Assembly (NCBI GenBank): GCA_030526045.1
Contig: JAUNDN010000022.1
Location: 1,495-41,443 of the forward strand
Source: Bacillota bacterium
GTDB taxonomy: Bacteria > Bacillota > Clostridia > Lachnospirales > Lachnospiraceae
Length of the DNA stretch: 39,949 nucleotides
Direction of reading: 5' to 3'
This document shows, piece by piece, positions 982 to 31,372 of this stretch. The notes under the pieces are model-generated. The model saw nothing but the letters and a program-made list of their open reading frames with translations, had not been told where the DNA came from and did not search any database. A program made the translations under genes and the position numbers. The first letter of the stretch is position 1, and every line of letters starts with the position of its first letter.

Positions 982-1917
982 TCACTTCTGTTTTTCTCTT
1001 GCTCTTTTCCTGTCATTTTTATCCTGATACAGTTCCACATTTCCAAGTCCTTGCACAAACTTGGAGAACTGGCTGTATCCGAAATCCTTAACGTTAAAAT
1101 GATTGTATTTATTATAGACACGATTACTCAGCTCGCTGATGCCGATTCCCTTTGCTCCGGATTTCTGAATAATTCCTCTGACATAATTGCAGATTTCCTC
1201 ACGGGACTTTTCGTTATTTCTCAGTGAAATGGTAATCACATTCTGGTTCTTTTCCAGATGGAACATTCCTGCATCCTCCACGAATTTAGAAAGCAGGCTA
1301 TATCCGTAATTTCTCACGTCAAAGTCAGGATACATATTCACAAGGCGATTGCCAACAGCTGCGAGCTCCAGACTTTTCCCTTTATTTTCATTCTCATTGA
1401 CAATGTTTGTAATCGCATTATAGATCACTTCTCTGCCGATGGTATTATCCTTATCATCCTTATTAGCAGTATCCTCATCCTGATTACTCAAATTTTCCAG
1501 ATTAACAAAACGGGTACAGGCCACACGAAAAGAACGCGGTGTCTTCTCTTCCCCCATCCCAATCACTTCCATGCCCGATTCCCGAAGGCGGCTGGCAAGG
1601 CGGGTGAAATCACTGTCGCTGGATACAATACAGAACCCCTCTACATTCCCTGTATACAGAATATCCATGGCATCAATGATCAGGGTAGAATCCGTTGCAT
1701 TTTTTCCCACCGTATTGCTGAACTGCTGTACAGGAATCACAGAATTCTCTAACAGTTCGCCCTTCCATTTGTTTGCCTGTGTACTGGTCCAGTCTCCGTA
1801 AATTCTCTTATATGTGGTAATACCGTAGGTAGAAAGTTCCTCCAGAATCACACCGATATATTTAGCTGATATGTTATCTGCATCAATCAATAGTGCAAAG
1901 CGCTTATTATCCATCAA
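982..1917 (-). CDS. NYN-domain RNase-like protein with two OST-HTH/LOTUS domains
   Basis: 311 residues. Residues 5-142 form a NYN (PIN-like) nuclease domain with the expected acidic set: D12 and D14 in LLIDADN, D76 in KNATDSTLIIDAMD, and D101/D103 in VSSDSDF. A polar linker (144-160) leads to two tandem OST-HTH/LOTUS domains, about 162-232 and 239-300, each carrying the pattern YxxF-V-x-Y-GYSxxSKFV. LOTUS domains bind RNA, so a role in RNA cleavage or decay is the family expectation; the substrate is unknown. The start is the first of two adjacent ATGs, 7 bases after AGGAGG. It stands alone between the oad terminator and the amidase gene and has its own extended -10 promoter. Confidence 0.9.
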   Translation of the reverse strand: MMDNKRFALLIDADNISAKYIGVILEELSTYGITTYKRIYGDWTSTQANKWKGELLENSVIPVQQFSNTVGKNATDSTLIIDAMDILYTGNVEGFCIVSSDSDFTRLASRLRESGMEVIGMGEEKTPRSFRVACTRFVNLENLSNQDEDTANKDDKDNTIGREVIYNAITNIVNENENKGKSLELAAVGNRLVNMYPDFDVRNYGYSLLSKFVEDAGMFHLEKNQNVITISLRNNEKSREEICNYVRGIIQKSGAKGIGISELSNRVYNKYNHFNVKDFGYSQFSKFVQGLGNVELYQDKNDRKRAREKQK

Positions 1918-1961: not shown

Positions 1962-1987
1962 AAACCCCTCACACCAGTGAGGGGTTT
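1962..1987 (-). terminator. Rho-independent terminator of the oad/mmd operon
   Basis: A perfect 11-bp stem, AAACCCCTCAC with GTGAGGGGTTT, closes a 4-base ACCA loop. On the minus strand it follows the oadA stop by about 25 bases and runs into a T5 tract. A T-rich run also exists on the plus side (TTTCTTTT), so the element could work in both directions, although no plus-strand gene ends here. Confidence 0.93.
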
Positions 1988-2011: not shown

Positions 2012-3439
2012 TTATACGGGATATGCTGCATTCTTGGTGTCTGCCTGTGTCATATCTACCTTTTCCTGCTGAGCCTGACGATACTTGAAGAAGTCCGTTG
2101 CCACCTGAGGGAACAGTGCATAAGACAATACATCCTCATCCTGCTGCTTCCATTCCTTCATTTCAGACTCTAACTTATCCATCTCGTTTTCAATCAGATC
2201 TGCGGGACGGCAGGTAATTCTCTCTTCACCGGGAATAACCTTGTCAATAACTTCCTGGCTCATCGGTTTAACTGTCTGACCATATTCGCCACGAAGAACT
2301 GCCTTGGTTTCCTTAGTTGCCATCTTGTATCTTTCACCCATCAGTACATTAAATACAGCTTGTGTACCAACAATCTGTGAAGAAGGTGTAACCAAAGGAG
2401 GCTCACCTAAGTCCTTACGAACCTGAGGAATTTCCTTCAGCACATCATAGTACTTATCTTCCGCATTCTGTTCCTTCAGCTGGCTAACCATGTTAGAAAG
2501 CATACCGCCGGGAACCTGATATAACAGTGTCTTGATATCAACACCCATAACCTTGGGATTCAAAAGTCCGCTTGCAAGGCACTCATCTCTGTAAGGTCTG
2601 AAATAATCAGCAATTTCAGCAAGAAGGTTCTGATCATAGCCTGTATCGTAAGGAGTTCCCTTGAAGGTTTCAACCATAACCTCGGTTGCAGGCTGTGAAG
2701 TACCCATAGCAAAAGGTGAAATTGCACAGTCGATCACATCTACCCCTGCTTCTACTGCTTTCAGGTAAGTCATGCTGGCAACACCGGATGTATAGTGTGT
2801 ATGTAACTGAATCGGGAGCTTGGTTGCCTCCTTCATTGCCTTGATCAATTCAGCTGCCTTGTAAGGAACCAGAAGACCTGCCATATCCTTGATACAGATA
2901 GAATCTGCACCCATCTCTTCAATCTTCTTAGCCATATCTACCCAGTATTCCAGAGTATAGGCATCACCTAACGTATAGGAAAGAGCAATCTGTGCATGAC
3001 CTCTTCCTTCCTGTACCTTGATCTTATTCGTTGCATTAACCGCTTCCTGAAGGTTTCTCAAGTCATTCAGACAGTCAAAGATACGGATGATATCAATACC
3101 GTTTGCAATGGACTTCTCAACAAAGCTGTCTACCACGTCATCTGCGTAAGGTCTGTATCCTAAGATATTCTGACCTCTGAACAGCATCTGCAGCTTCGTA
3201 TTCTTGAAGCCATCTCTTAATTTTCTAAGTCTCTCCCATGGATCTTCCTTTAAGAAACGAAGGGAAGCATCAAATGTTGCACCACCCCAGCATTCTACTG
3301 CGTGATAACCAACTTTATCCATTTTCTCTACGATTGGAAGCATCATATCGGTAGGCATTCTTGTTGCAATCAGGGACTGATGTGCATCACGAAGAACGGT
3401 TTCCATAATTCCAACCGGTTTTTTAACCTGTTCTGCCAT
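2012..3439 (-). CDS. oadA: Oxaloacetate decarboxylase alpha subunit, carboxyltransferase part only
   Basis: 475 residues, the biotin-dependent carboxyltransferase that moves CO2 between oxaloacetate and biotin (pyruvate carboxylase subunit B / transcarboxylase 5S family). Family residues are in place: D18 in RDAHQSL, K184 in CIKDMAG (the carbamylated lysine) and H213/H215 in LHTHYTSG, all around the metal of the TIM barrel; the C-terminal part matches the conserved PYC_OADA region. Unlike Klebsiella OadA it has no C-terminal biotinyl domain; a separate 117-residue carrier is encoded two genes upstream. It is the last gene of a five-gene operon, 30 bases after oadB, and ends at a strong terminator. 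The 5S subunit of propionibacterial transcarboxylase is an equally good relative. Confidence 0.93.
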   Translation of the reverse strand: MAEQVKKPVGIMETVLRDAHQSLIATRMPTDMMLPIVEKMDKVGYHAVECWGGATFDASLRFLKEDPWERLRKLRDGFKNTKLQMLFRGQNILGYRPYADDVVDSFVEKSIANGIDIIRIFDCLNDLRNLQEAVNATNKIKVQEGRGHAQIALSYTLGDAYTLEYWVDMAKKIEEMGADSICIKDMAGLLVPYKAAELIKAMKEATKLPIQLHTHYTSGVASMTYLKAVEAGVDVIDCAISPFAMGTSQPATEVMVETFKGTPYDTGYDQNLLAEIADYFRPYRDECLASGLLNPKVMGVDIKTLLYQVPGGMLSNMVSQLKEQNAEDKYYDVLKEIPQVRKDLGEPPLVTPSSQIVGTQAVFNVLMGERYKMATKETKAVLRGEYGQTVKPMSQEVIDKVIPGEERITCRPADLIENEMDKLESEMKEWKQQDEDVLSYALFPQVATDFFKYRQAQQEKVDMTQADTKNAAYPV

Positions 3440-3469
3440 TTGTTAAATCCTCCTATATATTTATAATGA

Positions 3470-4621
3470 TTAGAATACACCAAATACTGCCATGAAGGTA
3501 CCTGCTGCTACAGCAGTACCGATAACACCCGCTACGTTAGGTCCCATAGCATGCATCAGCAGGAAGTTGGTAGGATCAGCTTCTGCGCCAACCTTCTGTG
3601 AAACTCTTGCCGCCATAGGAACTGCAGATACACCGGCAGAACCGATCAACGGATTTACCTTACCCTTGGTAGCAATACACATCAGCTTACCAAACAGAAC
3701 GCCTGCTGCGGTACCGAATGCAAATGCAATCAGACCAAGAATGACGATTTTGATGGTATCCCAGTTCAGGAATGCCTCTGCACTTGTAGTCGCACCTACA
3801 GATGTACCAAGCAGGATAACTACGATATACATCAGTGCGTTGGAAGCTGTATCCGTCAGCTGTCTTACAACACCGGATTCTCTGAACAGGTTACCCAGCA
3901 TCAGCATACCGACAAGGGGAGCTGTTGTAGGAAGAATCAGACATACTACAATCGTAACAATAATCGGGAAAAGGATCTTTTCAAGCTTGGATACCGGACG
4001 AAGCTGTCCCATTTTGATCTTTCTTTCCTTTTCTGTTGTCAGCAGCTTCATAATAGGCGGCTGAATAATCGGTACCAGTGACATATAGGAATAAGCTGCC
4101 ACCGCAATCGGTCCGAGCAATGCTGTCTGTCCAAGCTTACCTGCAAGGAAGATGGATGTAGGACCGTCTGCACCACCGATAATGGAGATTGCTGCTGCAG
4201 CCTTATCATTAAAGCCAAGAGCAATTGCTCCAAAGTATGCTGCAAAAATACCAAACTGTGCTGCAGCACCGAGTAAGAAGCTCTTAGGATTGGCAATCAG
4301 GGGACCGAAGTCCGTCATGGCACCAACTCCCATGAAAATCAGGGAAGGTAAAATTGCCCACTCATCTAAGAGATAAAAATAATACAGTAAGCCACCGACT
4401 CCGTTTGAAGATTCTTCAATTGACATCATGATGTCGGGATAAATGTTAACCAGCAGCATACCAAATGCGATCGGTGTCAAAAGCAATGGTTCAAAGCCCT
4501 TGGCAATCGCAAGATAAAGAAACACACAGGCAACAATGATCATTGCAAAATTTCCTACAGTCAGGTTAAAAAAGGCTGTCTGATGGATCAGGTTGTCCAG
4601 TGTTGTTACGATATAATCCAT
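3470..4621 (-). CDS. oadB: Na+-translocating decarboxylase beta subunit (OadB/MmdB/GcdB)
   Basis: 383 residues, polytopic, the membrane pump that decarboxylates carboxybiotin and exports Na+. The signature [13 protein letters not shown] at about 149-161 contains the aspartate linked to Na+ transport in this family, and the second conserved stretch, [14 protein letters not shown] (327-340) followed by [10 protein letters not shown] (356-365), is intact. Length equals that of short MmdB/GcdB-type subunits; Klebsiella OadB is longer. The start follows AGGAGGT. It lies between the biotin carrier (46 bases upstream) and oadA (30 bases downstream), so it is clearly part of one membrane complex. The sequence alone does not say whether oxaloacetate, methylmalonyl-CoA or another acyl-CoA feeds it. 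Confidence 0.94.
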
Positions 4622-4667
4622 TTTTTTTACCTCCTGTTGTTTTGATCAGTACACACAATGTCCGGCA

Positions 4668-5021
4668 TTAGTTCAGAGTTGCCAGTAATGCGCCTGCTTC
4701 AACAGGATCACCAACAGCTACGTCGATGCTTGCAACAGTACCATCCTGCGGTGCTACAACAGGGATTTCCATCTTCATTGCTTCAAGAATCACTACTGTA
4801 TCGCCAGCCTTAAGAGCCTGTCCGACACTTGCTTCAACCTTGAACACCTTACCTGCTGCACCGGCCTCTACTCTTACACTGCCTGCTGCGCCGGCTGCTG
4901 CCTTAGGTGCTGCTGCAGGTGCTGCCTTGGGAGCTGCAGGTGCGGGTGCTCCTGTGGATGCTCCTTCCTCTACTACTACATCATATACGTTTCCGTTTAC
5001 GGTAATTGTATAATTTTTCAT
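4668..5021 (-). CDS. Biotin carboxyl carrier protein of the decarboxylase/transcarboxylase complex
   Basis: 117 residues. A short N-terminal beta segment (MKNYTITVNGNVYDVVVEEG) is followed by an alanine/proline/lysine-rich flexible linker (about 21-47) and a biotinyl domain with the signature EAMKMEI; K83 is the biotinylated lysine. This is the layout of MmdC/GcdC and of the 1.3S subunit of transcarboxylase. It is the only biotin carrier in the operon although two carboxyltransferases are encoded, so it probably visits both active sites and then OadB. The AT-poor linker codons (repeated GCTGCAxxx) make the gene locally repetitive. Start supported by AGGAGG 8 bases upstream. Confidence 0.94.
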   Translation of the reverse strand: MKNYTITVNGNVYDVVVEEGASTGAPAPAAPKAAPAAAPKAAAGAAGSVRVEAGAAGKVFKVEASVGQALKAGDTVVILEAMKMEIPVVAPQDGTVASIDVAVGDPVEAGALLATLN

Positions 5022-5062
5022 TACTAAAATCCTCCTGTGATCTTATTCATCAATCTAAATTA

Positions 5063-5839
5063 TTAAGCTCTCTGCCATTTATTTCCGGCACGTCTGATGC
5101 TTCTTACAACAAATCCGTCAGTAGAAGAAGCGCCTTCACTTGCTGCAATAGCTGCTGCAATAACAGCTACCAGTTCCAGATCATCGGAAAGCTCTTCCTT
5201 CTCAATGATCTGTGCAATTGTATTATCCACTGCTGCACTCTTGACATCTTCCTTGGCAGGCTTCTTCGCAAATTTTGCCTGAAGCTTGGGAATCAGGTTA
5301 AAGCAGCTGATAATTCCGCAAATCAGAATCAGAACCACAAATACGGTTCCCATTCCAAGCAGGGTATTTAATGCAGCCTTCTGCATGTTTTCACCAAAGG
5401 TGTAGTTTACATTGGTAGTAATACTGGTGGGGTTAGAATCTTCAAACACAAATTCCACTGTAGCATTACGTTTTTCCCCTTTAATCTCGACTGTAAGTAC
5501 ACCATCCACCGGATAAGGTTGTCCTTGCATCTCTTCAACAACAACAGTGTTTCCGGTGACCTTGACCAATTCCACATAATTACCCATATCCTCGGAAGCT
5601 TTTGCCCAGCTGTTAAGAGCATTTTCAAGCATCGTAGTATCCATGCCGTTCTGCTTCATACTGGCAAGGTAGCTCTCCTCTGCGTTCTGGATCACTATCA
5701 AATTAATTGTGTCAATAATGCCTCCAGCGAGTTCTTCCGCAGTCTGTGTTGACAGCAGGTTTACCTCTTCCTCCTGTCCACAAGCTGAAAAAGCAAGCAT
5801 ACAGGTAATCATACCTAATACTAATAACCATTTTTTCAT
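5063..5839 (-). CDS. OadG-like subunit fused to an exported lipoprotein domain
   Basis: 258 residues. Residues 1-19 are a lipoprotein signal peptide with lipobox FSAC (C20). Residues 21-150 form an extracytoplasmic domain resembling DUF3887-type small domains. A transmembrane helix spans about 155-182, and the cytoplasmic tail (183-258) is of OadG/MmdD type, ending in GFVVRSIRRAGNKWQRA, which typically closes such subunits. OadG/MmdD subunits are small single-pass proteins of 80-120 residues that help assemble OadA/MmdA with OadB. Here that piece is joined to an outer-face lipidated sensor-like domain, an odd arrangement. It sits 18 bases after the acyl-CoA carboxyltransferase and 41 before the carrier. 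Confidence 0.82.
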   Translation of the reverse strand: MKKWLLVLGMITCMLAFSACGQEEEVNLLSTQTAEELAGGIIDTINLIVIQNAEESYLASMKQNGMDTTMLENALNSWAKASEDMGNYVELVKVTGNTVVVEEMQGQPYPVDGVLTVEIKGEKRNATVEFVFEDSNPTSITTNVNYTFGENMQKAALNTLLGMGTVFVVLILICGIISCFNLIPKLQAKFAKKPAKEDVKSAAVDNTIAQIIEKEELSDDLELVAVIAAAIAASEGASSTDGFVVRSIRRAGNKWQRA

Positions 5840-5857
5840 ATTAAGTAATCATCCTTT

Positions 5858-7288
5858 CTAGACTGTACCATGTTTCTTTGCAGGACGGTCTTCCCTCTTT
5901 GTGAACAGCATCTCAAATGCACCGATCACATATTTTCTGGTATCTGCGGGTTCGATGATCTGATCAACATATCCTCTCTTTGCTGCACCTGCTGCGCTTG
6001 TCTGCAGTGCTGCATATTCTTTTGCACAGGCATCAATTGCATCTGCGCCCTGACCGTCACAAATAATCTTTGCTGCAAGCTTTGCATCCATCGTACCAAT
6101 CTGTGCATCCGGCCATGCCATAGTGATATCAGCACCGATTGCCTTGGAATTCATTGCCACATAAGCGCTTCCGAATGCCTGTCCGATAATAACGTTTACT
6201 TTAGGAACTGTTGCATTTGCAAATGCATATGTAAGCTTAGCTGCTGCCTTGGCGATCTTCTTCTCTGCGCATTTGTCTGCCTTAAAGCCCTTCACATTGG
6301 TAAGTGACAGAACCGGAATATTGAATGCATCACAGAAGTTTACGAAATCTGCTGCTTTATCACAGCCTGCAGGAGTCAGAACAGCATCAAATTTATCTGT
6401 TACAGTTCCGTCCTCTCCGTATACCTCACTGCGGTTTGCAACAGCGCCTACTGTCACACCGTTCAATCTGATCAGTGCGGTTACCATTTCCTTCGCATAG
6501 CCTTCTTTTACTTCAAATACCACGCCGTCATCGGCAAGCTGGGACAATGCAATGGAGGTATCTCCTGTGCATCCTGCAATTTCTGTGCAGACCCGATTCA
6601 GATCATCCGTGCATTCTTCAAAGGACATATCATCCTCATTATTGGCAGGAAGCATTGCTACCAGTTCTCTGATCTTAGCAAGAATAGAAGCTTCATCTGC
6701 AACTACATCAACGATTCCTGCTTCCTCGCTCTGAAAAGCAGCTGCAGAGGTATCACACTTGCTGATCTCATTTCCGTCTAATGCATTCGGAGCATTTACG
6801 AATAGCTTTGCTTTCTTCTCTTCCATAAATGTGAAGTCTGTCAAAGTAGGAATCAGGGCAAGTCCGCCACCGCAGGATCCAAAGATTGCTGTGATCTGGG
6901 GAATAATGCCTGAGCTTAAAACCTGCTTTTTGTAGATTTCACCGAAACCGTTCAGTGCATCGGTTGCTTCCTGTAATCTAAGTCCGGCAGACTCAATCAG
7001 TCCGATTACGGGTGCTCCCGTCTTAAGTGCCAGATCATAGAGGCTGGCAATCTTCTTTGCATGCATTTCACCGATACTGCCGTTTAATACGGAAGCATCC
7101 TGGCTGTATACATACACAAGGTTGCCACCAATCACTCCGTAGCCGGTAATAACACCGTCAGAAGGAGTCTCAGTCTGTTTCAAATTAAAATCTGTGCTTC
7201 TTGCTGTAATCTGCGCACCGATTTCAACGAAACTGTTTTCATCGAGTAAAGCGGTAATTCTTTGACTCGCCTGTGAAGTAGTACTCAT
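5858..7288 (-). CDS. Divergent acyl-CoA carboxyltransferase subunit (MmdA / transcarboxylase 12S family)
   Basis: 476 residues, two crotonase-like halves typical of the Carboxyl_trans family (MmdA, GcdA, PccB). It should exchange CO2 between an acyl-CoA and biotin on the carrier. The two oxyanion-hole loops are recognisable but unusual: GSCGGGLALIP (137-147), where the family usually reads xCAGGAxYSP, and GQAFGSAYVAMNSK (369-382), where it usually reads xAYGGAYxxMxSK. The protein is shorter than usual (about 510). These changes suggest a different acyl-CoA substrate or reduced activity. It is the first gene of the oad operon, with GGAGGG 8 bases before ATG. Candidate substrates are methylmalonyl-, malonyl- or glutaconyl-CoA; I cannot decide between them. 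Confidence 0.85.
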   Translation of the reverse strand: MSTTSQASQRITALLDENSFVEIGAQITARSTDFNLKQTETPSDGVITGYGVIGGNLVYVYSQDASVLNGSIGEMHAKKIASLYDLALKTGAPVIGLIESAGLRLQEATDALNGFGEIYKKQVLSSGIIPQITAIFGSCGGGLALIPTLTDFTFMEEKKAKLFVNAPNALDGNEISKCDTSAAAFQSEEAGIVDVVADEASILAKIRELVAMLPANNEDDMSFEECTDDLNRVCTEIAGCTGDTSIALSQLADDGVVFEVKEGYAKEMVTALIRLNGVTVGAVANRSEVYGEDGTVTDKFDAVLTPAGCDKAADFVNFCDAFNIPVLSLTNVKGFKADKCAEKKIAKAAAKLTYAFANATVPKVNVIIGQAFGSAYVAMNSKAIGADITMAWPDAQIGTMDAKLAAKIICDGQGADAIDACAKEYAALQTSAAGAAKRGYVDQIIEPADTRKYVIGAFEMLFTKREDRPAKKHGTV

Positions 7289-27136: not shown

Positions 27137-30100
27137 ATGGAAAATCAGCATTATACCCTGGGTATTGACATCGGTTCTACCACTGTCAAAATTGCCATTC
27201 TGAACAATGCTAATCATATTTTGTTTTCTGACTATAAAAGGCATTTTGCCAACATCAGAGAAACGCTCCTTGATTTATTGAAGGAAGCCTTCGAAAAGCT
27301 TGGAAATATTGAACTTCACCCCATGATCACCGGCTCCGGCGGACTTACCCTCGCCAACCATCTGGAGATTCCCTTTGTGCAGGAGGTCATCAGTGTGGCT
27401 ACGGCACTCAAGGAGCTGGCGCCCGAGACAGATGTTGCCATTGAGCTTGGCGGTGAGGACGCTAAGATCATTTACTTTGAAGGCGGCAATGTGGAACAGC
27501 GTATGAACGGCATCTGTGCCGGTGGTACAGGATCCTTTATCGACCAGATGGCTTCACTGATTCAGACCGATGCTTCCGGCTTAAATGAATATGCCAGACA
27601 ATACAAATCCCTCTATACCATCGCTGCAAGATGCGGTGTATTCGCCAAATCAGACATACAGCCCCTGATTAATGAGGGAGCTACCAAGGAAGATTTATCT
27701 GCCTCCATTTTTCAGGCAGTTGTCAACCAGACCATCAGCGGTCTCGCATGCGGAAAGCCTATTCGCGGTCATGTTGCCTTTTTAGGCGGTCCGCTTCACT
27801 TTTTATCCGAATTAAAAGCTGCCTTCATCCGCACTCTAAAGCTGGATGAAGAGCATGTCATTGAGACGGAACATTCCCACCTCTTTGCTGCCATCGGTTC
27901 GGCGATGAATGCCAAGGAGGAGGTTTCCTATACCATGGAGGAAATGGTCTTAAAGCTTTCCTCCGATATTAAAATGGAATTCGAGGTGGAACGTATGGAG
28001 CCTCTGTTTTCCTCAACAGCAGAATATGAAAGCTTTCGTTCCCGCCATGGAAAGCATCACGTCCAAACAGCAGATCTTGCCTCCTACCGCGGCAACTGTT
28101 ATCTGGGTATTGATGCCGGAAGTACCACCACTAAGGTCGCGCTTGTAGGTGAGGACGGTTCTCTTTTGTATTCCTTCTACAGCAATAATGACGGTAGTCC
28201 CCTAAAAACTGCCATCCGTTCTATCCGTGAAATCTATTCGCTTCTTCCTGAGGATGCACAGATCGTACGCTCCTGCTCCACCGGCTACGGCGAAGCGCTG
28301 ATGAAGGCTGCTTTTCTTTTGGACGACGGAGAAGTGGAAACAGTGGCCCACTATTATGCCGCTGCTTTCTTCAACCCGGAGGTAGACTGCATCCTCGACA
28401 TCGGCGGTCAGGACATGAAATGTATTAAAATCAAGAACCAGACCGTAGACAGTGTACAGCTCAACGAGGCATGCTCCTCCGGCTGCGGTTCCTTTATCGA
28501 AACCTTTGCCAAATCCCTGAATTACAGTGTGGAGGACTTTGCCCATGCTGCTCTTTTTGCGGAGCATCCCATAGATTTAGGTACCAGATGCACCGTCTTT
28601 ATGAATTCCAAGGTAAAGCAGGCACAGAAGGAAGGTGCTTCCGTCCCTGATATCTCCGCCGGTCTTGCCTACTCAGTCATCAAAAATGCACTCTTTAAGG
28701 TTATCAAGGTTTCCGATGCTGCATCTCTCGGAAAAAACATTGTGGTTCAGGGCGGAACCTTCTACAACGATGCAGTTCTTCGAAGCTTTGAAAAAATAGC
28801 CGGCTGCGAGGCTGTCCGTCCTGACATTGCGGGAATCATGGGTGCTTTCGGTGCTGCCCTGATTGCAAGGGAGCATTACAGTGAGGGCTATGAAACCACC
28901 ATGCTGCCCTTTGAAAAGATTGACACCCTGCAATTTGAAACAAGCATGGCAAAATGCAAGGGCTGCACCAACAGCTGTCGTCTGACTATCAACAAGTTTA
29001 CCGGCGGACGCCAGTATATCTCCGGTAACCGCTGCGAACGCGGACTCGGCAAACAAAAAAATGAAAACGGTATTCCTAACCTTTTTGACTATAAGCTGAA
29101 GCGTATCTTCGGTTACGAGCCTCTTCCCGCCGACGAGGCTCCCCGCGGAACGGTTGGCATTCCCCGGGTTCTTAATATGTATGAGAATTACCCCTTCTGG
29201 TTTACCTTCTTTACGAAGCTGGGCTACCAGGTGGTTCTGTCTCCCTTATCCAACCGCAGGATCTATGAACTCGGCATTGAATCCATTCCCAGTGAATCCG
29301 AGTGTTACCCTGCCAAGCTGGCTCACGGACACGTAAGCTGGCTGATCAACCAGAAGGTAGACTTCATCTTCTACCCTGCATTGTTTTATGAAAGAAATGA
29401 ATTTGACGAGGCAAATAACCACTATAACTGTCCGATCGTTACCTCTTACTCCGAAAATATCAAAAATAACGTAGAGGAAATAGGCAGAGGAGAAGTCATC
29501 CTGCGTAACCCCTTCCTTTCCTTCCGGGATCTGAAAACTGTATCCGAGGCTCTGGTAAAGGAATTTAAGGAACTTCCCGTAGAGGAAGTCATGGAAGCCG
29601 CCCGCCTGGGCTGGGAAGAGCTTGCAAACGCGAGAACGGACATGCAGGCAAAGGGCGAGGAGGTTCTGTCTTATCTTAAGGAAACAGGAAAGCGGGGCAT
29701 TGTCCTAGCAGGTCGCCCTTATCATATTGATCCGGAGATCAACCACGGTATTCCCGAACTGATCACCTCCTACGGCATCGCTGTGCTGACAGAGGATTCC
29801 GTTTCCCATTTAGGCAAACTCGAACGGCCCTTAATCGTATCCGATCAGTGGATGTACCATTCCCGCCTTTATGCTGCCGCAAGCTATGTAAAAACGGTAG
29901 ACAACCTGGATCTCATTCAGCTGAACTCCTTTGGCTGCGGTCTGGATGCTGTAACTACAGATCAGGTAAACGATATCCTTACAGGCTCAGACAAGATATA
30001 CACCTGCCTTAAAATTGATGAAGTCAATAATCTGGGAGCTGCCAGAATCCGCATCCGCTCGCTTCTTTCTGCAATCCGTGTGCGTGAAAAGCAGAATAAG

Positions 30101-31372
30101 CAGCGTACCATCCGTTCCAGTGCCATCAACAAGGTGAAATTTACACAGGAGATGAGAAAGGATTACACCATCCTTTGTCCCCAGATGTCTCCGATTCATT
30201 TTGACATCTTAGAGTCTGCCTTTAATGCCTGCGGTTTCCACTTTGAAGTACTGTCTAACGACAACAGACGTGCCGTTGATGTAGGTCTTAAATATGTAAA
30301 CAATGATGCCTGCTACCCTTCCCTTATGGTAGTCGGACAGATCATGGATGCCCTGCTCTCCGGGAAATATGACCTGAACAAAACCGCAGTCATCATGACT
30401 CAGACCGGCGGCGGATGCCGTGCAACCAACTACATCGGCTTCATCAGACGTGCCCTTGAAAAAGCTGGCATGCCACAAATTCCGGTTATTTCCCTAAATA
30501 TGGGCGGAATTGAAACAAACCCCGGCTTTGAATTAAATGCAGAGCTGTTAATGCGTGCCGCATATGGCGCAGTATTTGGCGATATCTTCATGCGCTGTGT
30601 TTACCGCATGCGCCCTTACGAGAAGGAAAAAGGCAGTGTCGAGGCTGTCCACCAGAAATGGCTGAAAAAATGTCAGGCTTTTGTATCTGCAAAGCATATG
30701 AACTTCTTTACCTTCCGGAAGATGTGTCGTCAAATCGTAGAGGATTTTGATGCAATTCCCGTCACCGGAGAAGTCAAGCCAAGAGTGGGCATTGTAGGAG
30801 AAATTCTCGTAAAATTTGCACCTGCTGCCAACAACCACCTGGTTGAGTTGCTGGAATCTGAGGGTGCTGAAGCTGTAGTCCCTGATCTTTTGGATTTCAT
30901 GCTTTACTGCTTCTACAACCAGATATATAAGGCACAGGAGCTTGGAACAAGCAAAAAAACAGCGCTTATTTCAAGACTCGGTATCTATGCACTGGAGTTT
31001 TTGAGAGGAAGTGCCGCCAAGGCTCTTTCAAGAAGTAAGAACTTCACACCGCCTACCAGTATCTATCAGACTGTAGAGTATGCAAAGCCCATTGTTTCCA
31101 TCGGCAACCAGACGGGTGAAGGCTGGTTCCTGACCGGAGAAATGGTAGAACTGATTCACAGCGGCGTAAACAATATTGTCTGCACCCAGCCCTTTGCCTG
31201 CCTGCCAAACCATGTGGTCGGAAAGGGTGTCATCAAGGCACTGCGCAAGCAGTATCCATTAAGCAACATTGTGGCAATTGACTATGATCCCGGTGCCAGC
31301 GAGGTAAATCAGCTAAACCGCATTAAGCTGATGCTCTCCACTGCCCAGAAAAATCTTGCAAAGGAGAAATAA
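27137..31372 (+). CDS. Giant 2-hydroxyacyl-CoA dehydratase activase / DUF2229 fusion protein
   Basis: 1411 residues. Two ASKHA (BadF/HgdC-type) ATPase domains come first: about 5-265 ([12 protein letters not shown], then [11 protein letters not shown] and RCGVFAKSD) and 322-590 ([24 protein letters not shown] and RCTVFMNSK). The latter two stretches hold cysteines that bridge a [4Fe-4S] cluster in activases. A cysteine-rich segment (CKGCTNSC, then GNRCERG, about 606-635), a DUF2229 domain (about 680-900) and a C-terminal HgdB-like part with [13 protein letters not shown] and [14 protein letters not shown] follow. In known systems the ATPase drives one electron onto a dehydratase or double-cubane reductase; here both seem to be in one chain. 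Substrate unknown. AAAGGCGG precedes the start. Confidence 0.92.

What the first reader, a model, noticed from the sequence alone, without database searches (positions are those of the whole stretch)
2012..7288. One operon with two carboxyltransferases, one biotin carrier and a Na+ pump
The operon encodes an OadA-type (keto acid) and an MmdA-type (acyl-CoA) carboxyltransferase, but a single free biotin carrier plus OadB. Propionibacterial transcarboxylase is 12S (MmdA-like) + 5S (OadA-like) + 1.3S (carrier). Adding OadB would make an enzyme that can either move CO2 between acyl-CoA and pyruvate/oxaloacetate or spend it on Na+ export. The inference is a switchable transcarboxylase/Na+ pump.
Basis: partly seen in the sequence, partly recalled or inferred. 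Interest (0 to 1): 0.72.

Follow-up and report, generated by a model that had tools for sequence, protein, structure and literature searches.

The report
Shared biotin hub replacing biotin carboxylase
A five-gene bacterial operon carries two CO2-transferring enzymes and a sodium pump on one shared biotin protein, and that protein appears to be the cell's only one, so it probably also supplies the CO2 for making fatty acids in gut bacteria that have lost the usual ATP-burning step.

Summary
The operon is real (window 7288-2012, minus strand): MmdA-like carboxyltransferase, OadG-like subunit, free biotin carrier, OadB, OadA/5S-type carboxyltransferase without a biotin domain. The order recurs in relatives. 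The methylmalonyl-CoA analogy does not: the mutase was found in 0 of 150 family genomes.

The larger finding lies outside the coordinates. No biotin carboxylase and no other biotin carrier were detected in this genome, yet it keeps a fatty-acid operon with AccDA, from which accB and accC are missing. Of 150 genera, 46 lack detectable biotin carboxylase; 27 of those keep FabD. AccB and AccC are in none of those 27 FabD regions; of 27 positive controls, 27 have accB and 26 accC. The state changed at least six times on a fab tree.

Best reading: OadA (from oxaloacetate), or OadB in reverse, charges one carrier that serves the Na+ pump, the MmdA-like enzyme and AccDA, giving malonyl-CoA without biotin carboxylase. 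The anatomy is shown; the chemistry is inferred. A C. thermocellum model already assumes a transcarboxylase for malonyl-CoA.

The parts
5858..7288 (-). MmdA-like acyl-CoA carboxyltransferase (12S/PccB-type, 476 aa), divergent subfamily
   Evidence: PF01039 344 bits; best solved relative T. maritima propionyl-CoA carboxylase beta 1vrg 350 bits, 12S 1on3 312 bits; TIGR01117 404.9 bits, under its cut-off of 998.8
5063..5839 (-). OadG-like gamma subunit with a lipoprotein-type N-terminus and an extra domain of about 130 aa before the membrane helix
   Evidence: PF04277 at residues 154-234; TIGR01195 39.5 bits over its cut-off of 36.05; Cys20 conserved in 90% or more of 36 sequences; lipobox and topology read by eye
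4668..5021 (-). free biotin carboxyl carrier (117 aa), the only biotin/lipoyl domain found in the genome
   Evidence: PF00364 63 bits; 1 match genome-wide; biotinylation motif M-K-M in 101 of 101 aligned carriers
3470..4621 (-). OadB, Na+-translocating carboxybiotin decarboxylase
   Evidence: PF03977 514 bits; TIGR01109 487 bits over its cut-off of 190.6; GGADGPT in 95 of 95
2012..3439 (-). OadA/5S-type 2-oxoacid carboxyltransferase without a biotin domain (475 aa)
   Evidence: PF02436 and PF00682; NF008985 751.7 bits over its cut-off of 718; RDAHQS, CIKDMAG and LHTHYTS near-invariant in 88 sequences
1962..1987 (-). possible intrinsic terminator after the last gene
   Evidence: 11-pair hairpin, listed by the scan for the plus strand only; on the minus strand it ends in five T, three of them in the stem, read by eye; weak

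Best explanation
The operon makes a biotin hub. One free carrier is charged with CO2 by the OadA-type subunit from oxaloacetate, or, running backwards, by OadB from CO2 driven by Na+ influx. The charged carrier can be spent at OadB (Na+ export), at the MmdA-like subunit (an acyl-CoA), or at AccDA of the fatty-acid operon, where it gives malonyl-CoA. In this genome and in many genera of its family this hub has replaced AccB and AccC, so malonyl-CoA forms without an ATP-dependent biotin carboxylase. Shown: the genes, their order, the single carrier, no biotin carboxylase detected, AccDA and fab genes kept with accB and accC missing, several changes of state on a tree. Inferred: every carboxyl transfer, the physical sharing of the carrier, the direction of flux, that the changes of state were losses, and that AccDA accepts this carrier.
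For: Own genome: PF02785 none, PF00364 one, PF01039 only the MmdA-like protein and AccDA. AccDA passes both the accD (341.5 over 317.45) and accA (367 over 319.3) cut-offs, and FabD, the malonyl-CoA user, passes its own. The fab operon lacks accB and accC at their usual places, with gaps of 8 and 15 bp there.

Family census, one genome per genus, n=150: 46 without biotin carboxylase, of which 27 have FabD at E 1e-20. A PYC_OADA protein is present in 46 of 46 of them. Exactly one biotin/lipoyl domain in 41 of 46 against 5 of 104.

Gaps in negative against positive fab operons: FabF-FabZ median 9.5 bp (n=24, range -53 to 836) against 494.5 bp (n=26, 415-707); FabZ-AccDA 2 bp (n=11, -58 to 1119) against 1387 bp (n=25, 1350-1568). 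AccB and AccC are in none of the 27 negative regions; AccB is in 27 of 27 and AccC in 26 of 27 positive controls, one of which (L121) supplied the reference proteins. AccDA is kept in 16 of the 27 negative regions, fused in 11 and as separate AccD and AccA frames in 5. Seven of the others have a PccB-like carboxyltransferase (558 bits or more); six of these seven genomes have a single biotin/lipoyl domain.

At least 6 changes of state on a fab tree of 51 genera. 35 of 41 named genomes lack biotin carboxylase, including the complete genome AP025576.1 (L024). [quoted passage not shown]
Against: No biochemistry. The operon is nearly universal in the family, so its presence hardly tracks loss of biotin carboxylase: no PYC_OADA match in 0 of 46 against 6 of 104 (Fisher p = 0.18); counting four genera with only a pyruvate-carboxylase-length frame, 10 of 104 (p = 0.03); leaving out two of those ten cut by contig ends, 8 of 104 (p = 0.11) (no correction for kinship). 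19 negative genera also lack FabD, and 14 of the 17 of those whose operon I fetched keep the five genes in order, so the operon has a role apart from fatty acids. Three of the 27 genera (G025, G058, G105) have more than one biotin/lipoyl domain. Malonate activation (MatB) and fatty-acid uptake were not searched. The own genome is 90.3% complete. That AccDA accepts this carrier is unproved.
Confidence: 0.55

Rival explanations
1. It is mainly an oxaloacetate decarboxylase Na+ pump (PEP to oxaloacetate to pyruvate). The MmdA-like subunit is an accessory, and AccDA is starved, vestigial or fed otherwise (malonate, exogenous fatty acids).
For: PYC_OADA proteins are in 144 of 150 genera, with and without biotin carboxylase; at least four of these (G040, G075, G086, G138, all positive) show only a pyruvate-carboxylase-length frame. 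Two genera (G030, G042) keep OadG-carrier-OadB-OadA and have no PF01039 match at all. C. thermocellum Cthe_0699-0701 is listed as oxaloacetate decarboxylase (PMC3561251, passages).
Against: AccDA is kept in 16 negative fab regions, 11 fused and 5 as two frames, at 49-74% identity to the window genome's copy in the 15 other genera, and passes curated cut-offs in this genome. FabD needs malonyl-CoA. The MmdA-like gene is kept in 15 of 17 fetched genera that lack both biotin carboxylase and FabD, in 14 of them within the five-gene order.
Confidence: 0.25
2. The charging agent is OadB run backwards: a Na+-driven biotin carboxylation from CO2, with OadA only a side branch.
For: Reversal of such pumps with acetyl-CoA is reported (Dimroth and Hilpert 1984, title cited in PMC7274780). 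The five genes including OadB are in order in 23 of 26 other negative, FabD-positive genera; of the other three, G025 lacks OadB in the operon, G031 is cut by a contig end and G080 is split over two contigs, both with OadB.
Against: G025 is negative and FabD-positive but has no OadB in its operon (L149), so there OadA would suffice unless OadB lies elsewhere (not searched).
Confidence: 0.3
3. The MmdA-like subunit itself makes malonyl-CoA from acetyl-CoA and AccDA is redundant, as a C. thermocellum model assumes for its transcarboxylase.
For: G114 lacks biotin carboxylase, has FabD and a single PF01039 match, the MmdA-like one. Model iCth446 assigns Clo1313_1523-1526 to malonyl-CoA (PMC5414155, passages).
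Against: 23 of 27 such genera have a second carboxyltransferase seen directly: AccDA in 16 fab regions, PccB-like in 7. 25 of 27 have two or more PF01039 matches, but these can be halves of one gene.
Confidence: 0.25
4. Biotin carboxylase is present but unseen (missing contigs, or a protein too divergent for PF02785).
For: Draft genomes; the own genome is 90.3% complete. Some negative fab regions run into contig ends (L115-L118).
Against: The accB and accC slots are closed inside contiguous fab operons. Several negatives are 99-100% complete, and a complete 7.29 Mb genome is negative. The model rings in 13 of 14 control genomes.
Confidence: 0.06

Closest known systems
Propionibacterial methylmalonyl-CoA:pyruvate transcarboxylase (12S, 5S, 1.3S)
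   Same: An acyl-CoA and a keto-acid carboxyltransferase share one biotin carrier with no biotin carboxylase (recalled)
   Different: Here OadB and OadG are in the operon, the partner mutase is not found, and the 12S-like protein is divergent (312 bits to 1on3)
Na+-translocating oxaloacetate decarboxylase (OadGAB)
   Same: OadA-type, OadB and OadG subunits present with conserved motifs
   Different: Carrier is a separate protein; an acyl-CoA carboxyltransferase leads the operon
Na+-translocating methylmalonyl-CoA decarboxylase (mmdADECB, Veillonella; order recalled)
   Same: Carboxyltransferase, gamma, carrier, beta in that order
   Different: OadA appended; MmdA subfamily cut-off not reached; no mutase found in 150 genomes
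Clostridium thermocellum Cthe_0699-0701 / Clo1313_1523-1526
   Same: Treated as a putative transcarboxylase supplying malonyl-CoA where acetyl-CoA carboxylase is missing (PMC5414155)
   Different: That is a model assumption; the loci were not compared here; the cases here often retain AccDA
Bacterial multi-subunit acetyl-CoA carboxylase (AccBCDA)
   Same: AccDA carboxyltransferase kept in the fab operon
   Different: AccB and AccC missing from their usual slots

Membership tests
Na+-translocating oxaloacetate decarboxylase | OadA-type carboxyltransferase, OadB and OadG encoded together | tested here: met
   NF008985, TIGR01109 and TIGR01195 over their cut-offs (the oadA equivalog TIGR01108 was not: 666.9 against 756.5, a model that includes the biotin domain)
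Na+-translocating oxaloacetate decarboxylase | biotin domain fused to the alpha subunit (classical enterobacterial form, recalled) | tested here: not met
   no biotin-domain match in the 475-aa protein; separate 117-aa carrier
Na+-translocating oxaloacetate decarboxylase | Na+ transport coupled to oxaloacetate decarboxylation | not testable with these tools
   needs biochemistry
12S/5S/1.3S transcarboxylase | 12S-like + 5S-like + single free carrier | tested here: met
12S/5S/1.3S transcarboxylase | 5S equivalog model NF008984 | tested here: not met
   547.1 bits against a cut-off of 827
12S/5S/1.3S transcarboxylase | methylmalonyl-CoA mutase partner in the genome | tested here: not met
   PF01642 0 of 1 own, 0 of 150 family at E 1e-20, rings in 8 of 14 controls
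Na+-translocating methylmalonyl-CoA decarboxylase | TIGR01117 mmdA subfamily cut-off | tested here: not met
   404.9 against 998.8 bits
acetyl-CoA carboxylase (AccBCDA) | AccD and AccA carboxyltransferase | tested here: met
   own AccDA fusion passes TIGR00515 and TIGR00513
acetyl-CoA carboxylase (AccBCDA) | AccC biotin carboxylase and AccB carrier | tested here: not met
   PF02785 none; only the operon's carrier; slots closed

The most novel reading that the evidence does not exclude
In much of the Lachnospiraceae, malonyl-CoA for fatty acids is made by an acetyl-CoA carboxylase without biotin carboxylase. AccDA draws carboxybiotin from a membrane Na+-decarboxylase/transcarboxylase hub charged by oxaloacetate or by the Na+ gradient, so one carrier couples glycolysis, the sodium motive force and lipid synthesis. 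The arrangement arose repeatedly by losing accB and accC.
Probability: 0.45. Interest if true: 0.88.

Novelty: new variant of a known kind. Interest (0 to 1): 0.75.

Why it matters
ATP-dependent biotin carboxylation is usually treated as the obligate first step of bacterial fatty-acid synthesis and is a drug target (general knowledge). If 46 of 150 sampled genera of this family lack it, 27 of them still carrying FabD, then a common gut family runs the committed step on oxaloacetate or Na+ energy. That could explain the patchy acetyl-CoA carboxylase predictions reported for butyrivibrios (36-61 of 62 genomes for its subunits, against 60 or more for FabD, F, G, Z and K; PMC4478896, passages). 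It would correct metabolic models that gap-fill a biotin carboxylase (PMC2852388 used carbamoyl-phosphate synthase; passage), and it gives a natural enzyme set for ATP-free malonyl-CoA.

Tried and rejected
Methylmalonyl-CoA/propionate role: rejected for lack of mutase.

Chance juxtaposition: rejected by conserved order.

Acyl-CoA specificity from sequence: the residue after the second GAY-type motif is Val here (Ile in 1vrg and 7w5u, Val in 3n6r). That this position sets specificity is recalled. Inconclusive.

Riboswitch or other RNA in the window: none at gathering threshold. Promoters: 13 found against 11.6 expected, uninformative.

Neighbours as part of the system: the NYN-LOTUS gene lies within the locus in only 8 of 48 complete loci over 15 kb, and the upstream DacS11, ScpB and ScpA genes (46, 41 and 41 of 48) look like plain synteny.

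Limits of the counts. Not tallied: MmdA-OadA distances across all 150 genera (searches list them; the OadB-less outliers G025 and G100 were picked by eye and read in L149 and L183). Of the 80 named loci 41 were tested for biotin carboxylase; many are MAGs of unstated completeness, and at least two (L037, L058) are the same genomes as G023 and G028 of the census, by identical match coordinates. The 27 positive fab controls (of 101 positive genera with FabD) came mostly from the top of hit lists, not at random. The census table was typed by hand; negatives beyond the listed 20 were got by subtraction. The match lists are capped. The tree used the quick method on fab proteins, leaves out G074 (too few genes), G025 and G081, flags G098 and G103 as long branches, and cannot tell gain from loss. 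L163 counts as in order although its MmdA frame is cut by the contig end. Not searched (cap reached): MatB, PEP carboxykinase, OadB elsewhere in G025 and G100, other families. L087-L093, L119 and L128 were fetched but are in no count.

Full report
**Observation.** The window holds five closely spaced genes on the minus strand, 7288 to 2012, followed by a hairpin that may be a terminator (weak). Profiles identify them as an MmdA-like carboxyltransferase, an OadG-like gamma subunit, a free biotin carrier, OadB and an OadA/5S-type carboxyltransferase without a biotin domain. The MmdA-like protein is homologous to propionyl-CoA carboxylase beta and 12S subunits (1vrg 350 bits, 1on3 312 bits) but reaches only 404.9 of the 998.8 bits needed for the MmdA subfamily. 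Motifs of OadA, OadB and the carrier are near-invariant over 88, 95 and 101 aligned sequences; their catalytic meaning is recalled. The MmdA-like motifs vary more at individual sites.

**Conservation.** In 80 named loci chosen by MmdA similarity, 67 hold all five genes in order; 12 are cut by contig ends and L077 has a split OadB frame and a cut OadA. In a sample of one genome per genus from the family (n=150, completeness 90% or more), a PYC_OADA protein is found in 144 at E 1e-8, though at least four of these (G040, G075, G086, G138) show only a pyruvate-carboxylase-length frame, and PF01039 proteins are found in 148. Partial operons occur. G025 and G100 have MmdA-OadG-carrier-OadA without OadB (L149, L183). 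G030 and G042 have OadG-carrier-OadB-OadA and no PF01039 match in the genome. G092 has MmdA-OadG-carrier-OadB with OadA on another contig. So the pump half and the transcarboxylase half are separable, and the five-gene form is the composite.

**Not methylmalonyl-CoA.** Methylmalonyl-CoA mutase was not found in the own genome nor in 150 of 150 family genomes at E 1e-20, while the same search rings in 8 of 14 control genomes.

**What the window does not show.** The own genome (2.68 Mb, 90.3% complete) has one biotin/lipoyl domain, the operon's, no detected biotin carboxylase, one PYC_OADA protein, and, besides the MmdA-like protein, one other PF01039 protein, an AccDA fusion. AccDA sits in a contiguous operon acpP-fabK-fabD-fabG-fabF-fabZ-accDA-(fabK-like)-fabH and passes the accD and accA cut-offs; FabD, which uses malonyl-CoA, passes too. 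The FabF-FabZ and FabZ-AccDA gaps are 8 and 15 bp.

**Census.** Biotin carboxylase (PF02785) is missing in 46 of 150 genera. FabD is found in 128 of 150 at E 1e-20, 108 over its cut-off. Cross-table: negative/FabD-positive 27, negative/FabD-negative 19, positive/FabD-positive 101, positive/FabD-negative 3 (Fisher p = 6e-9, not corrected for kinship). A PYC_OADA protein is missing in 0 of 46 negatives and 6 of 104 positives (p = 0.18). Adding the four with only a pyruvate-carboxylase-length frame gives 10 of 104 (p = 0.03); leaving out G022 and G033, whose operons run into contig ends, gives 8 of 104 (p = 0.11). So presence of the operon separates the groups weakly at best. Exactly one biotin/lipoyl domain: 41 of 46 against 5 of 104. 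Of the 27 FabD-positive negatives 24 have exactly one; G025 and G058 have two and G105 three.

**Fab operons.** I fetched the FabD region of all 27 negative/FabD-positive genera (own L086; others) and of 27 positive genera. AccB and AccC matches are in none of the 27 negative regions (gaps for 25 of the 27). AccDA is in 16, fused in 11 and as two frames in 5. Some negative regions run into contig ends (L115-L118). Seven of the rest (G025, G043, G049, G065, G091, G111, G140) have a PccB-like carboxyltransferase instead (558 bits or more). In G025 it lies beside fabD (L113). For the other six I found no carrier match in the fetched stretch (L177 is cut short), each of these six genomes has a single biotin/lipoyl domain, and I read the neighbours of two in full. 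G114 has only the MmdA-like one; G031, G080 and G081 are incomplete or unclear. In the positive set AccB is in 27 of 27 and AccC in 26 of 27 (L141 is cut); the reference AccB and AccC came from one of these, L121. Median gaps: FabF-FabZ 494.5 bp (n=26) against 9.5 bp (n=24); FabZ-AccDA 1387 bp (n=25) against 2 bp (n=11, the negatives where the two are neighbours). One divergent negative, G103, has 836 and 1119 bp. On a FabD-G-F-Z tree of 51 genera the state changes at least 6 times (shuffled mean 17), and well-supported branches force 6; the tree alone cannot tell loss from gain, and two negatives sit on long branches.

**Named genomes.** Of 41 of the 80 named loci used as handles, 35 genomes lack a PF02785 match. 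They include Parablautia intestinalis (L006), Lachnospiraceae bacterium 10-1 (L011), Eisenbergiella porci (L022) and the complete 7.29 Mb genome of Lachnospiraceae bacterium CE91-St56 (L024). Six have it: L037, L038, L050, L058, L083 and L085. I did not see their fab operons.

**Operon in negatives.** In 26 other negative/FabD-positive genera the five-gene order is present in 23 (one, L163, with MmdA cut by the contig end); G025 lacks OadB, G031 is cut by a contig end and G080 is split over two contigs. In 17 of the 19 negative/FabD-negative genera (G121 and G125 not fetched) it is present in 14; two lack MmdA and one (G092) is split. The operon therefore has a role besides fatty acids, and the acyl-CoA used by the MmdA-like subunit is not settled.

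**Mechanism.** Established chemistry (recalled; partly in the papers below) allows OadA to carboxylate carrier biotin from oxaloacetate, OadB to decarboxylate it with Na+ export or run in reverse, and 12S/AccDA-type enzymes to pass CO2 to acyl-CoA. With no biotin carboxylase and no other carrier seen, the simplest way to charge biotin for AccDA is this operon. Whether oxaloacetate or Na+-driven CO2 fixation is the main source is open; the OadB-less operon of G025 favours oxaloacetate there. Oxaloacetate decarboxylation has a listed free energy of -34.4 kJ/mol (PMC8100219, passage); I did not compute the free energy of the net transfer to acetyl-CoA.

[quoted passage not shown] PMC5414155: C. 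thermocellum lacks a standard acetyl-CoA carboxylase and the model recruits a putative transcarboxylase Clo1313_1523-1526 for malonyl-CoA. PMC2852388 gap-filled biotin carboxylase with carbamoyl-phosphate synthase. PMC3039559 found Cthe_0699 at about 220 kDa without other acetyl-CoA carboxylase subunits, and also above 880 kDa. PMC3561251 lists Cthe_0699-0701 as oxaloacetate decarboxylase. PMC4478896 reports patchy acetyl-CoA carboxylase subunits but nearly universal Fab enzymes (FabH 41 of 62) and oxaloacetate decarboxylase in 62 of 62 butyrivibrio genomes. PMC9960984, a review on engineered 3-hydroxypropionate, names methylmalonyl-CoA carboxyltransferase in a list of abbreviations; I saw no more. 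So the transcarboxylase-for-malonyl-CoA idea is in print as a model assumption. The family-wide loss of accB/accC with AccDA kept, and the single shared carrier, I did not find in searches of the held open-access library, which lacks most subscription journals.

**Verdict.** I rate it a new variant of known decarboxylase/transcarboxylase systems.

Noticed in passing
window 5063-5839: The OadG-like subunit is much longer than a classical gamma chain (258 aa; most relatives seen are 236-320 aa, some only 108-156 aa): a lipoprotein-type N-terminus with Cys20 conserved in 90% or more of 36 sequences and an extra domain with no Pfam match before the membrane helix.
   Followed up: partly
window 982-1917: A bacterial NYN nuclease-type protein with two OST-HTH/LOTUS domains (PF01936, PF12872) lies just downstream of the operon; found in 8 of 48 complete loci over 15 kb.
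   Followed up: partly
L149 (G025) and L183 (G100): Operons lacking OadB but keeping MmdA, OadG, carrier and OadA, which look like a transcarboxylase that has shed its pump.
   Followed up: partly
L182 (G013) and L113 (G025): A 12S/PccB-type carboxyltransferase directly beside fabD, with no AccDA match in the fetched stretch; G013 has biotin carboxylase, G025 does not.
   Followed up: partly
family census: 19 of 46 biotin-carboxylase-negative genera also lack a FabD match, against 3 of 104 positives, suggesting loss of fatty-acid synthesis in several genera of the family.
   Followed up: partly
window 27137-31372: A 1411-aa protein of the 2-hydroxyacyl-CoA dehydratase activase type (PF01869 twice, PF09989), followed by a DUF4317 protein.
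   Followed up: no
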